The translations under genes and the position numbers were made by a program. DNA of 64,000 bases, from the NCBI RefSeq assembly GCF_001542625.1, contig NZ_CP016279.1:4836001-4900000 (forward strand), in the 5' to 3' direction. This stretch comes from Streptomyces griseochromogenes. Its GTDB lineage: Bacteria > Actinomycetota > Actinomycetes > Streptomycetales > Streptomycetaceae. Positions 5,245 to 50,760 of the stretch are shown here, piece after piece; position 1 is the stretch's first letter; each line of letters begins with the position of its first letter. The notes under the pieces were generated by a model. The model did no database searches and was not told the origin of the DNA. It saw nothing but the letters and a program-made list of their open reading frames with translations.

Positions 5245-5538
5245 ATGGTCTGGGCATCGTGGACAACCCCCGGGGTCTTCGCCGGCCGGGGCGGCGCGCG
5301 TACGGACGAGGCGGGGGTCGTCACCGGCGACCTGACCGTCCACACCACCTGGGACGGCAATGTGGCCGACGTGACCGTCCAGTACACCGGCACTTCCGAA
5401 TGGTTCACCGTGACTGGAAGCCCCGTGCCCTGCCATTCGGAGCGGCAAAGCCGGAATCTGCACCAAGCGGTGGTGGCAGCTGTCAGAGCAGGCGGGGGAG
5501 TCACCGTTGACCAAGGGCTTGTCAGGGAAACCACCTGA
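5245..5538 (+). CDS. Small hypothetical protein
   Basis: This 97-residue soluble protein begins MVWASWTTPGVFAG and contains a beta-rich middle (LTVHTTWDGNVADVTVQYTG, then EWFTVTGSPVP), followed by an amphipathic helix HQAVVAAVRAGGGV. No family was recognised. The ATG is preceded by GGAAGG at 5230-5235, a good ribosome-binding site, which sets the start. It sits between stress-type genes and appears intact. It could be a short stand-alone regulatory or binding protein. No function is claimed. Confidence 0.6.
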   Translation: MVWASWTTPGVFAGRGGARTDEAGVVTGDLTVHTTWDGNVADVTVQYTGTSEWFTVTGSPVPCHSERQSRNLHQAVVAAVRAGGGVTVDQGLVRETT

Positions 5539-40076: not shown

Positions 40077-41837
40077 TCAGATGCCCCGTGGACTGGTCAG
40101 TCTGCCTGGCGGGGCGGGGCGGCCCAGGGGGAGGAGGTACTGGACCGGCTCGTCGAGGTCGTCGAGGCCGAGGAGCTCGTGGGTCAGGTCGTCGTGGAGG
40201 CCGCCGAGCGGGAGAGTGGCGAGGCCGAACGCCGCCGAGGTGAGCAGCAGCGTCTGCGCGAGGTGGCCGGCCTCCAGCAGGCCCAGCCGCAGGGCCCGCA
40301 GGCCGTAGCGGCGGCGCAGCAGGCCGAGGTCGAGGTGGACGGTGAGTACCGCCGGGGCCTCGTCGATGCCCACCGCGTCCGGGTCGTCCGCCGGCCGGGA
40401 GAGGTACGAGGACAGTGCCTTGAGCTCGGCGACGGTCGGGGCCGGGCCGATCGGGAGCAGTGTGCGGCGCTCCGGCACGCAGTGGTACGTGCCCGCGGCC
40501 AGGCCCGCGACATCCAGCGCCACCAGGCGCACGCGCACGCTGTAGAGGGCACCGGCGCTCGGGTACGGGCGGTGCCGGAGGGTCTGTACGGTGCCGTCGG
40601 CGAGCGGCCGGTGCGTCGCGTGGCTCTCGGCGTACGCGGACCACAGCACCCCGCCCAGGGTCCCCGCGTCCAGCGGCCCGTACAGCGGTCCGCGCACGGA
40701 GCTGCGTCGGCACAGTGCCTCGGCGAGCGACAGTTCCGGCAAGGGGACGGCGGGCAACGGCAGTTCGGCCGTCAGCCGGGCCGCCGAAGGGGTCGGCGGC
40801 GGGGGCAGGTCGCGCAGCGCGGTGTCCTCGGGTCGTCCGATCCGGAACTTGCTGCGCTCCAGGTACTGGTAGTCGGCCGCGCGGTGCCCGGCGGGGAAGA
40901 ACCCGGGGTCGTCCTCGGTCTCCAGCAGCGTGCGGGCCGCGAGGCGGCAGACGGCCCGCTCCTCGTCGGGGGTCACACCGAGCCGGTTGAACAGCATGTG
41001 CAGCTGGGACGCCCAGACCCAGGGCACACGGCGGGCGGCCTGCTCCGCGGGCACGGCGTCGCGCAACCGGGCGTCCGTGGCGCCCACCCGGCGCGCCCAC
41101 TCCGCCAGCCAGTGCGCGGCGGTGCCCGCGTCGAGGGCGGCGCCGAGGGCCCCGGCGCGCCGGACCAGGCCCGGCCGCTGGAGGGCGAACACCGAGTTCA
41201 CGCGGGAATGGACGGCGGCCCCGGGCAGCGGCTCCACCTCGGTGATCCAACGCCAGGAGGCGGCGTGCCGACGCAGCCAGCCCGCGGCCTGGAGTTCGTC
41301 GAGGCCGAGCGCGTGGGCGGTGGCATGGGCGAGGTCGAGGGCGAGCGGGAGCCGGGCGGCGCGGTCCGGGGTCGCGCGCAGCGCCTCGACGGCCGCGCGG
41401 GTGGAGTGGCAGAACACCTCCTCGGCGACGCGCAGCGCGGCGGGGCCGCCGTACCGCTCGGCCTCGGGTACGTACGGCACCTCGCGCACCTCGCCGTGCC
41501 GGGACGGCCAGGAGCCGGTGAACTCCGCGGGCCGGGCGGCCGCCAACTCCGCCAGGACGGCGGGAAGTCCGGCCGCCGCACCGGCGGGCAGCGGTCCCCG
41601 GAAGCGGATCCGCAGGTGGGGGCCGCCCTCGCCGTAGCGGATGAAGAACCAGGCGGCGCGCGGGTCGGCGGTCAGATCGTCCATCAGCGGAGCGAGGTCG
41701 TCGGTGACGAACGCGTCCGTCTCCGCGCCGCCGGTGTGCAGGGCGAGGTGCAGGCTGTGCCAGGCGTGTCCGGGGTACTCGGACGCGACCTCGGAGGCGG
41801 TCGGGCAGGGGCGGGGGCGGGGGCGGGCGGTCGTCAT
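40077..41837 (-). CDS. lazF: LazF-like fusion: glutamate-elimination domain plus azoline dehydrogenase
   Basis: This 586-residue protein has two parts. Residues ~20-280 are a SpaB_C/thiopeptide-type elimination domain (WHSLHLALHTGG, AWFFIRYGEGGPHLRIRFRG, PWVWASQLHMLFNRLGVTPDEE). Residues ~340-586 are an FMN-dependent SagB-type nitroreductase (LCRRSSVRGPLYGP, YPSAGALYSVRVRLV, GLLEAGHLAQTLLLTSAAFGLATLPLGG). In lactazole synthesis LazF removes glutamate from glutamyl-Ser to give dehydroalanine and oxidises thiazolines to thiazoles. This fused architecture is a hallmark of lactazole-type clusters. The ATG at 41837 lies 7 bases after the lazE stop, and it is the last gene of the chain. Confidence 0.92.
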   Translation of the reverse strand: MTTARPRPRPCPTASEVASEYPGHAWHSLHLALHTGGAETDAFVTDDLAPLMDDLTADPRAAWFFIRYGEGGPHLRIRFRGPLPAGAAAGLPAVLAELAAARPAEFTGSWPSRHGEVREVPYVPEAERYGGPAALRVAEEVFCHSTRAAVEALRATPDRAARLPLALDLAHATAHALGLDELQAAGWLRRHAASWRWITEVEPLPGAAVHSRVNSVFALQRPGLVRRAGALGAALDAGTAAHWLAEWARRVGATDARLRDAVPAEQAARRVPWVWASQLHMLFNRLGVTPDEERAVCRLAARTLLETEDDPGFFPAGHRAADYQYLERSKFRIGRPEDTALRDLPPPPTPSAARLTAELPLPAVPLPELSLAEALCRRSSVRGPLYGPLDAGTLGGVLWSAYAESHATHRPLADGTVQTLRHRPYPSAGALYSVRVRLVALDVAGLAAGTYHCVPERRTLLPIGPAPTVAELKALSSYLSRPADDPDAVGIDEAPAVLTVHLDLGLLRRRYGLRALRLGLLEAGHLAQTLLLTSAAFGLATLPLGGLHDDLTHELLGLDDLDEPVQYLLPLGRPAPPGRLTSPRGI

Positions 41838-41844
41838 CGCGTCC

Positions 41845-43887
41845 TCACGGGAAGGGGTGGGGGTCGAGGGGCAGTTCGTCGCGTCGCGGCGGCCGGGCGG
41901 TACGGCCCAGCCGGTGGGGCACTGTCAGCAGCCGGTCCAGTCCCGCGGTGCGGCGGTTGACGTGCCCGAAGGTCATCGGAAGCGTGCCGGGGACGATCAC
42001 CTTGGCGCAGTGCAGCCCCAGCCGGTCCCGTACGCCCGGCTCGTCCTGCGTGACCGCGATGACCTCCAGTCCCTCGGCGGCCAGCCGCTCCACGGTTCGC
42101 TCCAGCAGCCCCGTCAGGTCGGCCACCGGCTCGGGCGCCCCCGGCCACCGCTCGTACCACGGCGCCTCCGCGGTGTCGGCGAACAGGAAGTCCAGCCGGG
42201 GCTGCGCCTCGGGCAGGGTGTTGAGGCCGACGTGGTCGTCGAGGTCCAGCACCAGCTCGGGGCGGTCAAGCATCGGACGCAGCCGCTCCGGGTCCCGGGG
42301 ACCGCCCGGAGCGCAACGGCGGGCGGACTCCTGGACGTTGGTGACCACCTCGGCGACCGCCGAGCGGATCGCCACCCGGGGGTCGTGATGGGCGCCGGCA
42401 GCCAGGAACACGCGGGGCGCGTCGGGATGCGCGCCCTCGTAGCGGCAGAGCGAGATCACCGCCGGGACGCCCAGGTCGTTGGTGGCGTCCAGCAGGGTCA
42501 GGCGGTAGCGCAGCAGCGCGGCGCGGTCGGCCAGGGCGGTGACCTCCGGGTCGTCGGCGGGGACGGAGATCCGGGGCAGCGGGGTGCGCGCGTACCAGGC
42601 CATCAGGAAGGCGTCGCGTTCGGCGACCTCGAACAGCCCGTACAGCGCGGCCTCTTGGGGGCTGTTGCCCAGTCCACAGCCGTTCGAGGACTCGTACACC
42701 ACCCGCGGCCGGTCCGGCCCCGGTACGTCCCAGTACGCCACGTGCTCGGGTACCGCCAGCGCGCGGCGCTCGGTGAGCGACCAGCCGTACACCCAGTCGA
42801 GTGCGAGGCCGGGGGAGTACGGGAGGGTCCGGCGGGCGGGGTGACCGTCGAGCTCGGGATCCGGCAGGCCGAGCCGGACGGGGTCGAGTACGGCGTGCCC
42901 GCCCGCGGCGACGAGGTCGGCGTACGAGGCGCGGAGCACGGTACGGCGGCCGGTGGGCCGCATCCCGGCGAACCGCTCCACGCTCTCGAAGAGGGCGACG
43001 CGTTCGCTGGACCGGAAGTCGCCCGACCGGCCGTAACCGCCGTCGTCGAGGGGGCGGCCGTCCGTCACCCAGGCGGTGGTCAGCGCGAACGCGGAGTCCT
43101 CGGTCCTGAAGAGCCGGCGCACCGGCCCGAACCGCTCGTCGTGCAACTCGGCCCGCAAACGGGCGGGCGTGGCACGGGCGTTGGGGCCGCGCAGCACCGA
43201 CGGGTCGGGCACCGGCCGGGGCTCGGCCGGCAACCGGGCGTCGGCGGGCGAGTCGTCCGGCAGCGGCCGGCAGACCGGGCAGCCGCCGACCGGCCGGATT
43301 CGGTGGGTGGACCAGGTGTACCGGTCGCCTTGGAGGATGTGGAGGACGGCGCGGTCGTCGACCGTGACCGGGTCGGGGGCGTCGGGAGCGTCTGGCCCGG
43401 CGGGGCTGTCGGGGCCGTCGCGGTCGGATGGGGGCGGGGCGTGGCGGTCGGACGGGGGCGGGGCCGGTTCGAGCGGGTCGGCTGTGAGCAGGTCGGCCGT
43501 CAACAGGTCTGCCGCGAGCCGGAGCGCGGCCTCGGCCAGGGGCGGGGTCGCGGTGCCGCCGAGCGCCAGCCGCGGGCTCTGCCACGGCACCCGGCCGCCT
43601 GCAGTGGCCAGCCGCTGGTACTCCGCGCAGCCGACGCAAGCCCGCGCTCCGGGACGGAGTACGGGCCCGATCACGGTCAATGCCCCGTCCTCGCGCACCG
43701 GCACGAACCGCACCGGATGAGCCAGTGCGTGCCGGCTGAGCCGCTCGGCCAGTGCGAGATCCCACGCGGTCAGCCGCACGACGGCGGTGCCCGCGACGGT
43801 CGCGAGCGCCGCCGCCGGATCGAGGACCGGGACCGGGACGGGGACGGCGTACGGATCGGGGACGGCGTACGGAGCGGCGGTGCTCAT
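41845..43887 (-). CDS. lazE: LazE-like YcaO azoline cyclodehydratase
   Basis: The 680-residue protein has an N-terminal domain (~1-230) with two CxxC pairs (ACVGCAEYQ and GCPVCRPL) probably holding zinc. The YcaO domain follows, with ATP-binding elements FRSSERVALFESVERFAG and LFEVAERDAFLMAWYARTPLPRI, and the C-terminal PxPxP motif (PHPFP) typical of active cyclodehydratases. It uses ATP to turn Cys/Ser of the precursor core into azolines, working with the leader-binding LazD. Its ATG overlaps the lazD stop (ATGA at 43884-43887). An acidic, Pro-rich linker (about residues 150-185) is repetitive. Confidence 0.93.
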   Translation of the reverse strand: MSTAAPYAVPDPYAVPVPVPVLDPAAALATVAGTAVVRLTAWDLALAERLSRHALAHPVRFVPVREDGALTVIGPVLRPGARACVGCAEYQRLATAGGRVPWQSPRLALGGTATPPLAEAALRLAADLLTADLLTADPLEPAPPPSDRHAPPPSDRDGPDSPAGPDAPDAPDPVTVDDRAVLHILQGDRYTWSTHRIRPVGGCPVCRPLPDDSPADARLPAEPRPVPDPSVLRGPNARATPARLRAELHDERFGPVRRLFRTEDSAFALTTAWVTDGRPLDDGGYGRSGDFRSSERVALFESVERFAGMRPTGRRTVLRASYADLVAAGGHAVLDPVRLGLPDPELDGHPARRTLPYSPGLALDWVYGWSLTERRALAVPEHVAYWDVPGPDRPRVVYESSNGCGLGNSPQEAALYGLFEVAERDAFLMAWYARTPLPRISVPADDPEVTALADRAALLRYRLTLLDATNDLGVPAVISLCRYEGAHPDAPRVFLAAGAHHDPRVAIRSAVAEVVTNVQESARRCAPGGPRDPERLRPMLDRPELVLDLDDHVGLNTLPEAQPRLDFLFADTAEAPWYERWPGAPEPVADLTGLLERTVERLAAEGLEVIAVTQDEPGVRDRLGLHCAKVIVPGTLPMTFGHVNRRTAGLDRLLTVPHRLGRTARPPRRDELPLDPHPFP

Positions 43888-46103
43888 CGGGCGCCTCCCC
43901 GTCCGGTCAGGAGCGTGAATCCGGCTGCGCGCAGGGCGTCGGCGAGGGGGTGATGGTGGCCGGTGCCCCGCCGGGGTGTGGGGCGTAGGCCGGTCAGGCG
44001 GTGCAGGGCGGCGCGCAGGGCCGGTTCCCGGGCGGCGATCCCTGCCAGCCAGGCGTCGGTCCAGCCCTCGTCCGCCCAGCCGGGCGGCTCGACGCCGGCG
44101 AGCGGGGCCGCGGCCCCGCTGAGCGCGGTGTGCCGCGCCCGGTCCGGCACGTGCTCCGCCGCCATCGCGCGCGTGACCGCGTCGATGGCGGCGAGGGCCA
44201 CGGCGTCGGCCGCGGTGGCCTCGACGGCGTGGCTCACCGTGGCGGGGGAGGCGCTGGTACCGGCCGAGACCGATCGGACCCGGATGACGGCCGAATGGGC
44301 TTCCTCGGAGCCGAGTCGCCGGACCGACAGATCGGCCGACCGGCCCATGCGTTCGGTCAGCACGGTCCACCAGTGACGGGCCTGAGGGTGCGTGCGCCAG
44401 ACGTCGTTCCCGATGCCGTCGGCGCGGGCGCCGGCAGCGACCGGATCCGCCTCCGACGCGGTGTCGGCGGCTTCCGGCCCGATGTGGTCGAGGACGGCGC
44501 GGCGCAGTGCCCGGCCGTATGCGTGATCGGGGCTCGCTCCGACGATCGGGGCCGACGGGCCGTCGGCGAGGGCGAGTTCGGCGGCCCGGCAGGCGGCTTC
44601 CAGCCGGGCCAGGTCCGCTCGTACCGCTCCGGCGACCAGCAGACCCGCCGGGGTCCGGCAGGATGCGAGCGACGCGGGAAGCTGCGGCAGGGCCCCGGGC
44701 AGCGGCGCGTCGAGCACGCCGAGCAGCGGGTCGCCCAGGGCTGTGACCCGGCGCAGCGCCTCCCCGAGATCCGGCGCGGGCGGGGCGTCCGGCCTCCGGC
44801 GGGCAGCCCGAGGGGCCGCCGCCCACGGGTGGTACGTCGCCTCCGGCGGCTCGGCTCGGGCGATCAGCACGGCCGAGTGTCCGGCCGTCGCCGTGCCGGA
44901 GGCGTCCTCGTGCGCGGCAGGGTCGGGCAGGCCGGCGACGGCCGCGAGCAGCCGCCCGGCCGCGGCACCTGCGAGCAGGGCGACATGCGTACGGGACGGC
45001 TCCCTGGCAGAGGCAGAGGCACCGGTAACGGCAGCGGCAGCCGACTGCGACGGCGCCCGGGCACCTGCAGGCGGTGTGGCAGGCGCTGCCGATCGCGACT
45101 GCGTGGTGCCGGGCCTGCCTTGAGCCAACGCCGGCGTCCACAGTGGTGTGCTGGTGGTGAGGCGGGTGGCGATGGCGGTGGCGTCGGGGCGGGCGTGGTC
45201 CGGGGGGCCGGGCTCGGTGACGAAGCCGCCGTCGGCGTCGCAGGAGACGGCCAGCGCCACGGCCCCGGACGGAGCTTGGGCCGTGACCACGGCCCAGCCG
45301 ACGGGCAGCCGGCCGTCGGCGGTGACCCGCGGGCTCGCCCCCGCGCGGCGGAGCGCCCCCACGAGGCTCACGGCGAGAGGACCCTCGGGATCCGGAGTGG
45401 AGACGACCGGTCGCGCGGTCCGGATCGCTTCGACCGCCTCAGCCGGGTGGGCGGCTGACGAATCCGGCCAGGGCGGGAGTTCGGCCCCGTCCGGGTGCTC
45501 GACCAGCAGGTCGTGCTCGCGCAGTCGGGCCGCGAGCGTGGCGAGCGCCGCTTCCACCCGAGGGCCGGCCTGATCGCTCGCTGCGGCCCTTCCCCGGCTG
45601 CCTGCCTGCTCTCCGGCCTCGGCCTGCGCCCGGGCCACGCCCTGAATCTGGGCGTCGGCCCAGGGAGTGTCGTCCGCTCGTGCCTCGGTATCGGTCTGCG
45701 TGTCGTCGTCCGCCCTCGCCTCGGTACCAGCCTGTGCGTCACCGTCGCCCCGCACTGCCTGGTCCGGGGCGAGCCGGTCCGAGAGCAGCTGCCACAGGGC
45801 CGGCAGCGCGCGGCTGCCCTCCAGCGTGACGACGGCGCCGCGGCCGCGCAGGTGCAGACCCGTGAGCAGCGGGGTGACGGCCACGCCGGGCCGCAGTCGG
45901 AACCGCGGCTCCGACCCCGGCCGCGGCGCGGGCGCGACGAAGGTTTCGGGCGCGACGGGGGCCTCGGGCATGACGGGGGCTTCGGGCGTCGGCGGGGCGG
46001 GTTGCCCTCCTGGAACGGGGTCCGGGGGCTTCGGGACCGTGCCCGCCGCGGAGTCCGAGGGCTCCGCGGCTGTGTCTGGCGCGGCGGCGGGGGCAGTGGT
46101 CAT
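43884..46103 (-). CDS. lazD: LazD-like leader-peptide-binding (RRE) partner of the cyclodehydratase
   Basis: The 739-residue protein belongs to the ocin-ThiF-like group. After a Pro-rich N-terminus (residues ~1-60) comes a winged-helix RRE (FRLRPGVAVTPLLTGLHLRGRGAVVTLEGSRALPALWQLLSD...LATLAARLREHDLLVEH). A large domain with Ala-rich segments, conserved in thiopeptide clusters, completes it. It holds the precursor leader and presents the core to LazE. The RRE is interrupted by an unusual ~60-residue Asp/Ala/Thr insert with repeated TEARADD units. Its ATG overlaps the lazC stop (ATGA at 46100-46103), so stoichiometric translation is likely. Confidence 0.9.
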   Translation of the reverse strand: MTTAPAAAPDTAAEPSDSAAGTVPKPPDPVPGGQPAPPTPEAPVMPEAPVAPETFVAPAPRPGSEPRFRLRPGVAVTPLLTGLHLRGRGAVVTLEGSRALPALWQLLSDRLAPDQAVRGDGDAQAGTEARADDDTQTDTEARADDTPWADAQIQGVARAQAEAGEQAGSRGRAAASDQAGPRVEAALATLAARLREHDLLVEHPDGAELPPWPDSSAAHPAEAVEAIRTARPVVSTPDPEGPLAVSLVGALRRAGASPRVTADGRLPVGWAVVTAQAPSGAVALAVSCDADGGFVTEPGPPDHARPDATAIATRLTTSTPLWTPALAQGRPGTTQSRSAAPATPPAGARAPSQSAAAAVTGASASAREPSRTHVALLAGAAAGRLLAAVAGLPDPAAHEDASGTATAGHSAVLIARAEPPEATYHPWAAAPRAARRRPDAPPAPDLGEALRRVTALGDPLLGVLDAPLPGALPQLPASLASCRTPAGLLVAGAVRADLARLEAACRAAELALADGPSAPIVGASPDHAYGRALRRAVLDHIGPEAADTASEADPVAAGARADGIGNDVWRTHPQARHWWTVLTERMGRSADLSVRRLGSEEAHSAVIRVRSVSAGTSASPATVSHAVEATAADAVALAAIDAVTRAMAAEHVPDRARHTALSGAAAPLAGVEPPGWADEGWTDAWLAGIAAREPALRAALHRLTGLRPTPRRGTGHHHPLADALRAAGFTLLTGRGGAR

Positions 46104-50241: not shown

Positions 50242-50283
50242 GTGCGGCCGGCCGGCTGGACAGGACGAGCCGGCCGGCCGCAC
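50242..50283 (-). terminator. Perfect hairpin between the precursor genes and lazB
   Basis: GTGCGGCCGGCCGGC at 50242-50256 pairs perfectly with GCCGGCCGGCCGCAC at 50269-50283 (15-bp stem, 12-base loop). It lies 46 bases after the lazA2 stop and ~120 bases before lazB. There is no T-run. It probably attenuates transcription or stabilises precursor mRNA so that precursor exceeds enzymes. Confidence 0.75.
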
Positions 50284-50329: not shown

Positions 50330-50509
50330 CTAGTAGGGCAGGTCGGGCAGCCTGGGCTGGGCGCGCGAGGAGGAACCGCATGAGCCCGAGCCGGCTCCCC
50401 CGGATGCGCCCGTCTCGGGCAGCGCGACGGTGTCCCGCAGGGCGGTGACGGTCAGTTCGCCGAGCTCGGGGTCATCGAGGGCTAGGAGGTCCCCGCTGTG
50501 GTCGGGCAT
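50330..50509 (-). CDS. Second thiopeptide precursor, divergent core (LazA2)
   Basis: The 59-residue peptide begins MPDHSGDLLALDDPELGELTVTALRDTVALPETGA, a leader almost like that of LazA1. The core follows: SGGAGSGSCGSSSRAQP then RLPDLPY. Compared with LazA1 the Trp and three of four Cys are replaced (by Gly, Gly, a shifted position and Arg). The Ser-Cys pair needed for the pyridine-attached thiazole has become Ser-Arg. The GSSS-x-AQP segment is kept. ATG at 50509 follows GGGAGG by 6-7 bases, so the gene is well translated on paper. It may make a different product or be a degenerating duplicate. Confidence 0.88.
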   Translation of the reverse strand: MPDHSGDLLALDDPELGELTVTALRDTVALPETGASGGAGSGSCGSSSRAQPRLPDLPY

Positions 50510-50556
50510 GTGGAGCCTCCCAGGTTCGAAAGACGGTGTTCGGGATGGGCCCGGGG

Positions 50557-50760
50557 TCAGAGGACTACGGGCGTGTCCACTTGCGGCTGCGCGCACGACG
50601 ACGAGCCCTGGCACGAGCAGGAGCCCCACGAGGCGCCGTTCTCGGGCAGCGCGGCGGTGTCGCGCAGCGAGGTCACGGTCAGGTCGCTGAGGTCCAGGTC
50701 CGCGTCCAGGGCGAGGTCCTGGAGGTCCAGGCCGTCCTGCTGGTTCGGGGTACGGGACAT
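50557..50760 (-). CDS. lazA: Lactazole-type thiopeptide precursor (LazA1)
   Basis: The 67-residue peptide has an acidic leader (GLDLQDLALDADLDLSDL then TVTSLRDTAALPENGA) and the core SWGSCSCQGSSSCAQPQ followed by VDTPVVL. Lactazole's precursor, as I recall it, has the core SWGSCSCQASSSCAQPQDM, so the first 17 positions differ only at position 9 (Gly for Ala) while the tail is new and longer. Predicted chemistry is azoles at the Cys and Ser sites, dehydroalanines, and a pyridine from Ser1 and Ser12 with the thiazole of Cys13. ATG at 50758-50760 follows AAGGGAG by 7 bases. First gene of the operon. Confidence 0.95.
   Translation of the reverse strand: MSRTPNQQDGLDLQDLALDADLDLSDLTVTSLRDTAALPENGASWGSCSCQGSSSCAQPQVDTPVVL

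What the first reader, a model, noticed from the sequence alone, without database searches (positions are those of the whole stretch)
50330..50509. Second precursor LazA2 with a core that cannot make the usual thiazolyl-pyridine
Seen: the leader and the GSSS-x-AQP segment match LazA1, and the ribosome-binding site is good. But the Trp and the Cys at the positions of C5 and C7 are Gly, the pyridine-flanking Cys13 is Arg, and only one Cys remains. At the compared sites TGG/GGG, TGC/GGC and TGC/CGC differ by single bases. Established: lactazole's pyridine carries the thiazole from Cys13. Inference: LazA2 is a decaying duplicate, a decoy for the enzymes, or the precursor of a product with an unusual (non-azole-flanked) macrocycle and a Pro/Leu-rich tail.
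Basis: partly seen in the sequence, partly recalled or inferred. Interest (0 to 1): 0.85.

Follow-up and report, generated by a model that had tools for sequence, protein, structure and literature searches.

The report
A fading second lactazole precursor gene
This is an intact gene for a second precursor of a lactazole-type ring peptide, one of an old and widespread kind, but here its core has lost a cysteine that most relatives keep, so it is likely a spare that is wearing out, one that would still be able to form a ring poorly.

Summary
The ORF is real: window 50509-50330, minus strand, 59 aa, 47 bases after lazA1. It is not a degenerate copy of LazA1. It belongs to an old second-precursor class, LazA2 (Ser1, Cys9, Ser11-13, no Trp2), found beside LazA1 in 19 of 37 loci of a genome scan, alone in 4 of 37, and in one as a pseudogene. 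Gly2 and the one-residue longer ring are therefore ancestral. Particular to this strain are Ser5Gly, Cys7Gly, Cys14Arg and the leader changes Leu14Pro and Asp15Glu. It departs from 4 of 29 columns conserved at 90% or more; none of the other 37 LazA2 compared departs from more than 2. Its sister cluster (S. cellostaticus) carries LazA2 as a frameshifted pseudogene, and another close kin has Cys14Tyr. Best reading: relaxed constraint, early decay. "Cannot" is too strong: published LazA C13A still cyclises (PMC7210931), so a 35-membered product with a thiazole-free pyridine, at low yield, is possible. dN/dS does not decide (0.38, inside the range of other pairs). A separate LazA2 sub-class with Asn/His in place of Cys14 exists, in one case beside a complete laz cluster. 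That sub-class, rather than this gene, is the better place to look for natural lactazoles without the flanking thiazole.

The parts
50330..50509 (-). lazA2, second lactazole-type precursor, 59 aa, ATG to TAG
   Evidence: PF19409 and NF033400 above cut-off
50516..50521 (-). Shine-Dalgarno GGGAGG of lazA2, 6 nt before the ATG
50333..50404 (-). predicted core peptide SGGAGSGSCGSSSRAQPRLPDLPY (Ser1 at 50404-50402, Cys9 at 50380-50378)
   Evidence: core start by homology with LazA and LazA2 alignments
50363..50365 (-). CGC, Arg at core position 14, where 56 of 66 LazA2-register cores have Cys
50557..50760 (-). lazA1, canonical lactazole-type precursor, core SWGSCSCQGSSSCAQPQVDTPVVL
   Evidence: PF19409, NF033400
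47278..50118 (-). LazB, glutamylation (dehydratase N-terminal) enzyme, 946 aa
   Evidence: PF04738; colinear in L018 and L048
46100..47281 (-). LazC, predicted pyridine synthase, 393 aa
   Evidence: tblastn 87% and 88% identical at the same place in L018 and L048; named by order with laz; this exact ORF was not run against a family library
43884..46103 (-). LazD, predicted leader-binding (RRE) cyclodehydratase partner, 739 aa
   Evidence: position and homology to L018/L048; named by order with laz; a longer ORF containing it gave no Pfam or NCBIfam hit
41845..43887 (-). LazE, YcaO cyclodehydratase
   Evidence: PF02624, TIGR03604 on 41845-43842; start at 43887
40077..41837 (-). LazF, elimination domain fused to azoline dehydrogenase
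   Evidence: PF14028 + PF00881, TIGR03891, TIGR03605
50242..50283 (-). very stable hairpin between lazA2 and lazB, without a T-run
   Evidence: -42.6 kcal/mol, z -5.6; hairpins at the same place in L018 (z -2.9) and L048 (z -2.4)

Best explanation
lazA2 is an intact 59-codon gene of an old second-precursor class of lactazole clusters, and in this strain it is likely under relaxed constraint and on its way to becoming a pseudogene, while lazA1 and the enzymes LazB-F stay intact. SHOWN: the ORF, its ribosome-binding site, its place after lazA1, the class it belongs to, the strain-specific changes (Ser5Gly, Cys7Gly, Cys14Arg in the core; Leu14Pro, Asp15Glu in the leader), and the broken LazA2 of the sister cluster. 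INFERRED: the peptide would still be bound through its leader. Cys9 would become a thiazole and Ser12 an oxazole (LazDEF); Ser1, Ser11 and Ser13 would be dehydrated (LazBF); and LazC would join Dha1 with Dha13 at low efficiency, giving a 35-membered ring whose pyridine carries an Arg-Ala-Gln-Pro... tail instead of a thiazole. No selected product is assumed.
For: LazA2 is a distinct class and usually intact: 19 of 37 loci of the genome scan hold both LazA1 and LazA2, 4 of 37 a LazA2-type only. Sister cluster S. cellostaticus DSM 40189 (LazB tree support 98/86) has LazA2 with two 1-base deletions and a lost stop (TAG to TGG) beside an intact LazA1. S. actinomycinicus has the canonical core, so the changes arose on the window branch. 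4 of 29 columns conserved at 90% or more are changed here; of the 38 LazA2 compared, 29 change none, six change one, and P0053 and P0016 two each. Nine amino-acid changes on the window branch against 3.3 expected from LazB-F (P 0.007), 4 of them on conserved columns, about the 4.4 that unconstrained change would give (9 x 29/59, arithmetic). Close kin P0053 (NPDC086787) has Cys14Tyr and Ala29Val. G379 holds a LazA2-like frame that has lost its stop. G110 and G173, which group next in the tree (87/80), have LazA1 116 bases before LazB and no LazA2 match between.
Against: The ORF is unbroken after 15 counted substitutions on its branch. The serines thought to be needed (1, 11, 12, 13) and Cys9 are kept. 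The ribosome-binding site is good. dN/dS gives no support for relaxation: 0.38 against S. actinomycinicus, inside 0.00-0.59 for 13 other canonical LazA2 pairs, and N:S on the window branch does not differ from the enzymes (Fisher P 0.60). Synonymous change is somewhat raised too (6 against 3.2, P 0.10), so part of the excess may be a local rate effect. A LazA2 sub-class without Cys14 shows that loss of this Cys need not mean decay. The S. cellostaticus frameshifts come from one draft assembly.
Confidence: 0.7

Rival explanations
1. LazA2 here is a working precursor that has been re-shaped: it makes a 35-membered lactazole-type macrocycle whose pyridine bears Arg instead of a thiazole, with a Pro/Leu-rich tail.
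For: Intact ORF and ribosome-binding site. Ser1, Ser11-13 and Cys9 kept. LazA C13A was converted to a thiopeptide in vitro and the minimal motif was put at oxazole11-Dha12 (PMC7210931, section read). Tail extensions of up to 15 residues and rings up to 62-membered were accepted there. A LazA2 sub-class with Asn or His at this place exists and in one genome sits in a complete laz cluster.
Against: The two members of this clade seen to have lost Cys14 replaced it differently (Arg here, Tyr in P0053), with no sign of a preferred new residue. Two near-invariant leader residues changed as well. The sister lost the gene. In LazA-min Cys13, Trp2 and Ala14 were needed for efficiency, and S4-C7A,C13A was poor.
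Confidence: 0.2
2. LazA2 is a decoy or regulator: a precursor that occupies the enzymes without being finished, slowing LazA1 processing.
For: Leader largely kept, so binding would persist; co-directional with and 47 bases after lazA1.
Against: No class-wide non-processable core: 56 of 66 LazA2-register cores keep Cys14. The sister dispenses with it. Nothing tested here bears on regulation.
Confidence: 0.04
3. LazA2 is a recent degenerate duplicate of LazA1.
For: Shared leader segment and SSS-x-AQP.
Against: LazA2 with its own register and leader runs alongside LazA1 across the Streptomycetaceae laz clade and stands alone in four loci. The best hits of the window LazA2 are other LazA2, not LazA1.
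Confidence: 0.02

Closest known systems
LazA / lactazole A (S. lactacystinaeus laz cluster, BGC0000606; PMC7210931)
   Same: Same five-enzyme set LazB-F, same precursor type, Ser1 and an SSS triad for the pyridine (paper sections read; the LazA letters themselves are recalled).
   Different: Core register one residue longer (predicted 35- against 32-membered), no Trp2, no Cys5/Cys7, no Cys after the SSS triad, a longer Pro/Leu tail.
LazA2-type precursors of Streptomyces and Kitasatospora (named 'thiazolylpeptide-type bacteriocin' by NCBI; e.g. P0005, P0008, S. actinomycinicus L018)
   Same: Leader, Ser1, Ser6, Ser8, Cys9, Ser11-13, a Pro-rich tail ending LPDLPY as in P0005, place after lazA1.
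   Different: Most have Cys14 (56 of 66 register cores) and the DLDLGEL leader stretch; here Arg14 and DPELGEL.
LazA2 sub-class with Asn/His14 (P0059, P0063, P0075, P0084, P0086, P0104, P0108, P0123, G649, CBMA291)
   Same: Single Cys (Cys9 in the same register, except P0108, two residues longer), no pyridine-flanking Cys.
   Different: In 8 of the 9 aligned rows N-S/T-S-I-V/I-H-P follows the triad (P0104 differs); here R-A-Q-P-R-L-P. Not the nearest kin of this gene.
Pyritides (MroA1/A2, Micromonospora rosaria; PMC9247985, passages seen)
   Same: A pyridine macrocycle without a thiazole at the pyridine would result.
   Different: Pyritide precursors have no Cys and the cluster lacks azole genes; here Cys9 and LazDEF are present, and the ring would be far larger than 14-17 members.

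Membership tests
Thiopeptide precursor (PF19409, NF033400) | Profile score above the curated cut-off | tested here: met
   43.1 against 23.5 bits; 38.3 against 30 bits
LazA2 class | Register Ser1 - Ser8-Cys9 - Ser11-Ser12-Ser13 | tested here: met
LazA2 class | Gene before lazB, after lazA1 where lazA1 is present | tested here: met
LazA2 class | Cys at core position 14 beside the pyridine | tested here: not met
   Arg; of 66 distinct cores seen 56 have Cys, 7 Asn, 1 His, 1 Tyr, 1 Arg. Since 10 of 66 lack it, it is typical rather than strictly defining.
LazA2 class | Usual leader stretch D-L-D-L-G-E/D-L before TVT | tested here: not met
   D-P-E-L-G-E-L; Leu14 and Asp15 are conserved at 90% or more in the other LazA2 compared
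Canonical lactazole precursor (LazA) | Trp2, Cys5, Cys7, Cys13 and Ser10-12 | tested here: not met
   core SGGAGSGSCGSSSRAQP
Canonical lactazole precursor (LazA) | Conversion to a thiopeptide by LazB-F | not testable with these tools
   needs an in vitro reaction
Pyritide precursor | No Cys in the precursor and no azole-forming genes in the cluster | tested here: not met
   Cys9 present; YcaO and SagB-type dehydrogenase present; definition from PMC9247985
Pseudogene | Frameshift, internal stop or lost start | tested here: not met
   intact in the window; met in S. cellostaticus L048

The most novel reading that the evidence does not exclude
Lactazole clusters carry a second precursor line, LazA2, that has repeatedly given up the cysteine beside the pyridine (Arg here, Tyr in NPDC086787, Asn/His in a Kitasatospora/Streptomyces sub-class). 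This strain's LazA2 is a live member that makes a 35-membered lactazole with an Arg-bearing, thiazole-free pyridine: a natural bridge between thiopeptides and pyritides.
Probability: 0.17. Interest if true: 0.6.

Novelty: new variant of a known kind. Interest (0 to 1): 0.4.

Why it matters
Lactazole-like clusters were put at 251 of 508 predicted thiopeptide clusters, with only one member characterised by 2020 (PMC7210931, introduction read). The LazA2 line shows that many such clusters encode a second, differently built core, and that several replacements for the pyridine-flanking cysteine occur in nature. If the Asn/His sub-class makes rings, its LazC accepts such cores in nature as LazC accepted C13A in vitro. 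The window gene is useful mainly as a case of a precursor line caught during loss.

Tried and rejected
Pairwise dN/dS as a test of decay: not informative (0.38, inside the range of other pairs). A recent-duplicate origin: rejected by distribution. A closer relative than S. cellostaticus: not found; searches added none closer, and one search gave nearly the same genome draw. Counting LazA2 loss from protein lists (20 LazA1 protein clusters P0127-P0146 of this clade's type against 3 clade LazA2: P0004, P0005, P0053) is only suggestive: short ORFs often go uncalled, one search listed 120 of 396 hits and 120 of 121. The first rate test used rounded site counts, too large for the partly held LazF; one search recounts with exact three-way sites and its numbers are the ones given (N 9 against 3.3, P 0.007; S 6 against 3.2, P 0.10; all 15 against 6.4, P 0.003). 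A 34-base LazA2-like match upstream in G110 lies in an unrelated frame.

Literature: the listings, and passages of PMC7210931 (sections 4, 6 and part 1 of 7 read; others by term), PMC9247985, PMC10683472 and PMC4603692 (by term), showed no description of two-precursor lactazole clusters or of a LazA2 class; the listed papers were not otherwise opened. The thiopeptide survey of 2018 and the original lactazole paper of 2014 (both recalled) are not held, nor were any supplements read, so a description there cannot be excluded. Structure prediction was not used.

Full report
WHAT IS THERE. Window 50509-50330 on the minus strand is an open reading frame of 59 codons with a GGGAGG ribosome-binding site 6 nt before its ATG. 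It follows lazA1 (50760-50557) after 47 bases and precedes LazB (50118-47278), LazC (47281-46100), LazD (46103-43884), LazE (43887-41845) and LazF (41837-40077), all open reading frames without a break. B, E and F were identified by Pfam/NCBIfam; C and D are named by order and by homology to the same places in two relatives. Both precursors exceed the curated cut-offs of PF19409 and NF033400. The core is SGGAGSGSCGSSSRAQPRLPDLPY.

IT IS AN OLD SECOND-PRECURSOR CLASS, NOT A RECENT COPY. A homologue search with the window protein gave 32 proteins, itself included; the best are of one kind with core S[G/N]xxSSxSCGSSSCAxP. A scan of the genome collection (84,980 species by the tool's description) with their alignment gave 37 loci. 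Of these, 19 hold LazA1 and LazA2 side by side and 4 hold a LazA2-type precursor only (L028, at a contig end; L037; L042; L045). The other 14 have no intact LazA2: LazA1-type only, two LazA1-type genes, other precursors, or, in L048, a broken LazA2 (L048). In a draw of 392 genomes of the genus, 29 matched the LazA2 model, LazA1-type and weak matches included. In a LazB tree of 37 rows, LazA2-bearing clusters are spread through the Streptomycetaceae part. Hence Gly2 and the longer spacing (Ser1 to Ser11-13, against Ser10-12 in LazA) are ancestral: none of 66 distinct LazA2-register cores seen here has Trp2, and position 5 is Ser in 55 of 66 (the 66 come from capped lists).

WHAT IS PARTICULAR TO THIS STRAIN. 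Against S. actinomycinicus (L018) and S. cellostaticus (L048) the window branch changed Ser5Gly, Cys7Gly and Cys14Arg in the core and, among others, Leu14Pro and Asp15Glu in the leader. At core position 14 the 66 cores have 56 Cys, 7 Asn, 1 His, 1 Tyr and 1 Arg; at position 7, 39 Cys, 17 Ser, 9 Thr and 1 Gly. I counted departures from columns conserved at 90% or more in the others (29 or 30 columns; 38 LazA2 chosen by a motif that fixes part of the core but leaves position 14 open, and that leaves out the Asn/His sub-class). The window has 4 (Leu14, Asp15, Ser40, Cys49 in protein numbering), P0053 and P0016 have 2 each, six have 1, and 29 have none, among them its closest intact kin P0005 and L018. 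Scored against a profile of the others, the window ranks third lowest of 39, after P0104 and P0019; P0053 is fourth.

EVIDENCE OF DECAY. The nearest cluster by LazB is that of S. cellostaticus DSM 40189 (support 98/86). Its LazA2 has two single-base deletions and TAG changed to TGG, while LazA1 is intact. The NPDC086787 protein P0053 has Tyr at position 14 plus leader changes. G379 carries a LazA2-like frame without a stop, with some serines and leader residues altered. G110 and G173, which group next in the tree (87/80), have LazA1 116 bases before LazB and no LazA2 match between. On the window branch LazA2 has 9 amino-acid and 6 silent changes over 56 comparable codons; 3.3 and 3.2 are expected from LazB-F on the same branch (P 0.007 and 0.10), and LazA1 has 1 and 2. 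Four of nine amino-acid changes fall on conserved columns, about what unconstrained change would give (9 x 29/59 = 4.4, arithmetic).

EVIDENCE AGAINST DECAY. dN/dS does not show relaxation: window against L018 0.38, thirteen other canonical pairs 0.00-0.59, and the N:S ratio on the window branch does not differ from that of the enzymes (Fisher P 0.60). The frame is unbroken. The serines thought to build the pyridine and the oxazole are kept, and so is Cys9. The S. cellostaticus frameshifts rest on one draft assembly.

COULD IT STILL WORK. In the published FIT-Laz system (PMC7210931; sections 4, 6 and part 1 of 7 read, other passages) S1A, S10A, S11A and S12A abolished thiopeptide formation, C13A did not, S4-C7A,C13A worked poorly, and W2A was inefficient; the authors put the minimal motif at oxazole11-Dha12. 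The window core keeps Ser1 and Ser11-13 and lacks Trp2 and the flanking Cys. By inference it would be a poor but not impossible substrate, giving a 35-membered ring (lactazole's 32 plus three atoms for one residue) with Arg at the pyridine. Native enzymes of two-precursor clusters presumably tolerate absence of Trp2, since no LazA2 seen has it. Pyritides show that a pyridine macrocycle needs no neighbouring thiazole (PMC9247985, passages).

A BETTER CANDIDATE FOR THE BOLD READING. A LazA2 sub-class replaces Cys14 by Asn or His while keeping Ser1, Cys9 and Ser11-13 (nine sequences aligned; P0108 is two residues longer in the ring). In 8 of the 9, N-S/T-S-I-V/I-H-P follows the triad; P0104 differs. 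In genome G649 such a gene lies after a LazA1-type gene and before complete LazB, C, D, E and F; in CBMA291 it is the only precursor found, with LazB, LazC and the start of LazD before the contig ends. So absence of the flanking cysteine can be a settled state. Pairwise dN/dS between these two members is 0.57, and 1.27 over the core alone; between the G649 gene and a canonical LazA2 (L033) 0.84 and 1.55 (few sites; one canonical pair, L042-L037, also reaches 1.09 over the core). Purifying selection on that core was therefore not shown; the shared Asn and tail are the evidence.

VERDICT. Likely early decay of a normally useful second precursor (0.7). The live-precursor reading stays open (about 0.2).

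Noticed in passing
P0059, P0063, P0075, P0084, P0086, P0104, P0108, P0123; L139:2813-3010 (+); L045:9953-10156 (+): LazA2 sub-class with Asn/His instead of the pyridine-flanking Cys, most with a shared S/T-S-I/V-V/I-H-P tail; beside a LazA1-type gene and complete LazB-F in G649, the only precursor found in CBMA291.
   Followed up: partly
window 50242-50283 (-), L018 and L048 same place: A 16-pair GC-rich hairpin (-42.6 kcal/mol, z -5.6) without a T-run between lazA2 and lazB, also predicted in both relatives: a possible attenuator between precursors and enzymes.
   Followed up: partly
L117 about 5330-5480 (-): In genome G379 the second precursor looks decayed: core SPGAGSCSRGSSPCAAPRPPDLPL, no stop at the usual place.
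   Followed up: partly
L122 651-1698 (+), genome G643: Four tandem lactazole-type precursors, one of them with a core that begins with Thr (GATTQNCSCMASSSC) instead of Ser.
   Followed up: no
P0055, P0061, P0068, P0069, P0070, P0076, P0085, P0093, P0099, P0106 and others: LazA2-register cores, several of them named as Lentzea proteins, with extra cysteines after the triad (SSSCCC or SSSCSSC), 11 of 66 cores: tails of several azoles expected.
   Followed up: no
L020, L030, L047, L049: Clusters with two Trp2-type precursors and no LazA2, so doubling of the precursor also happened within the LazA1 line.
   Followed up: no
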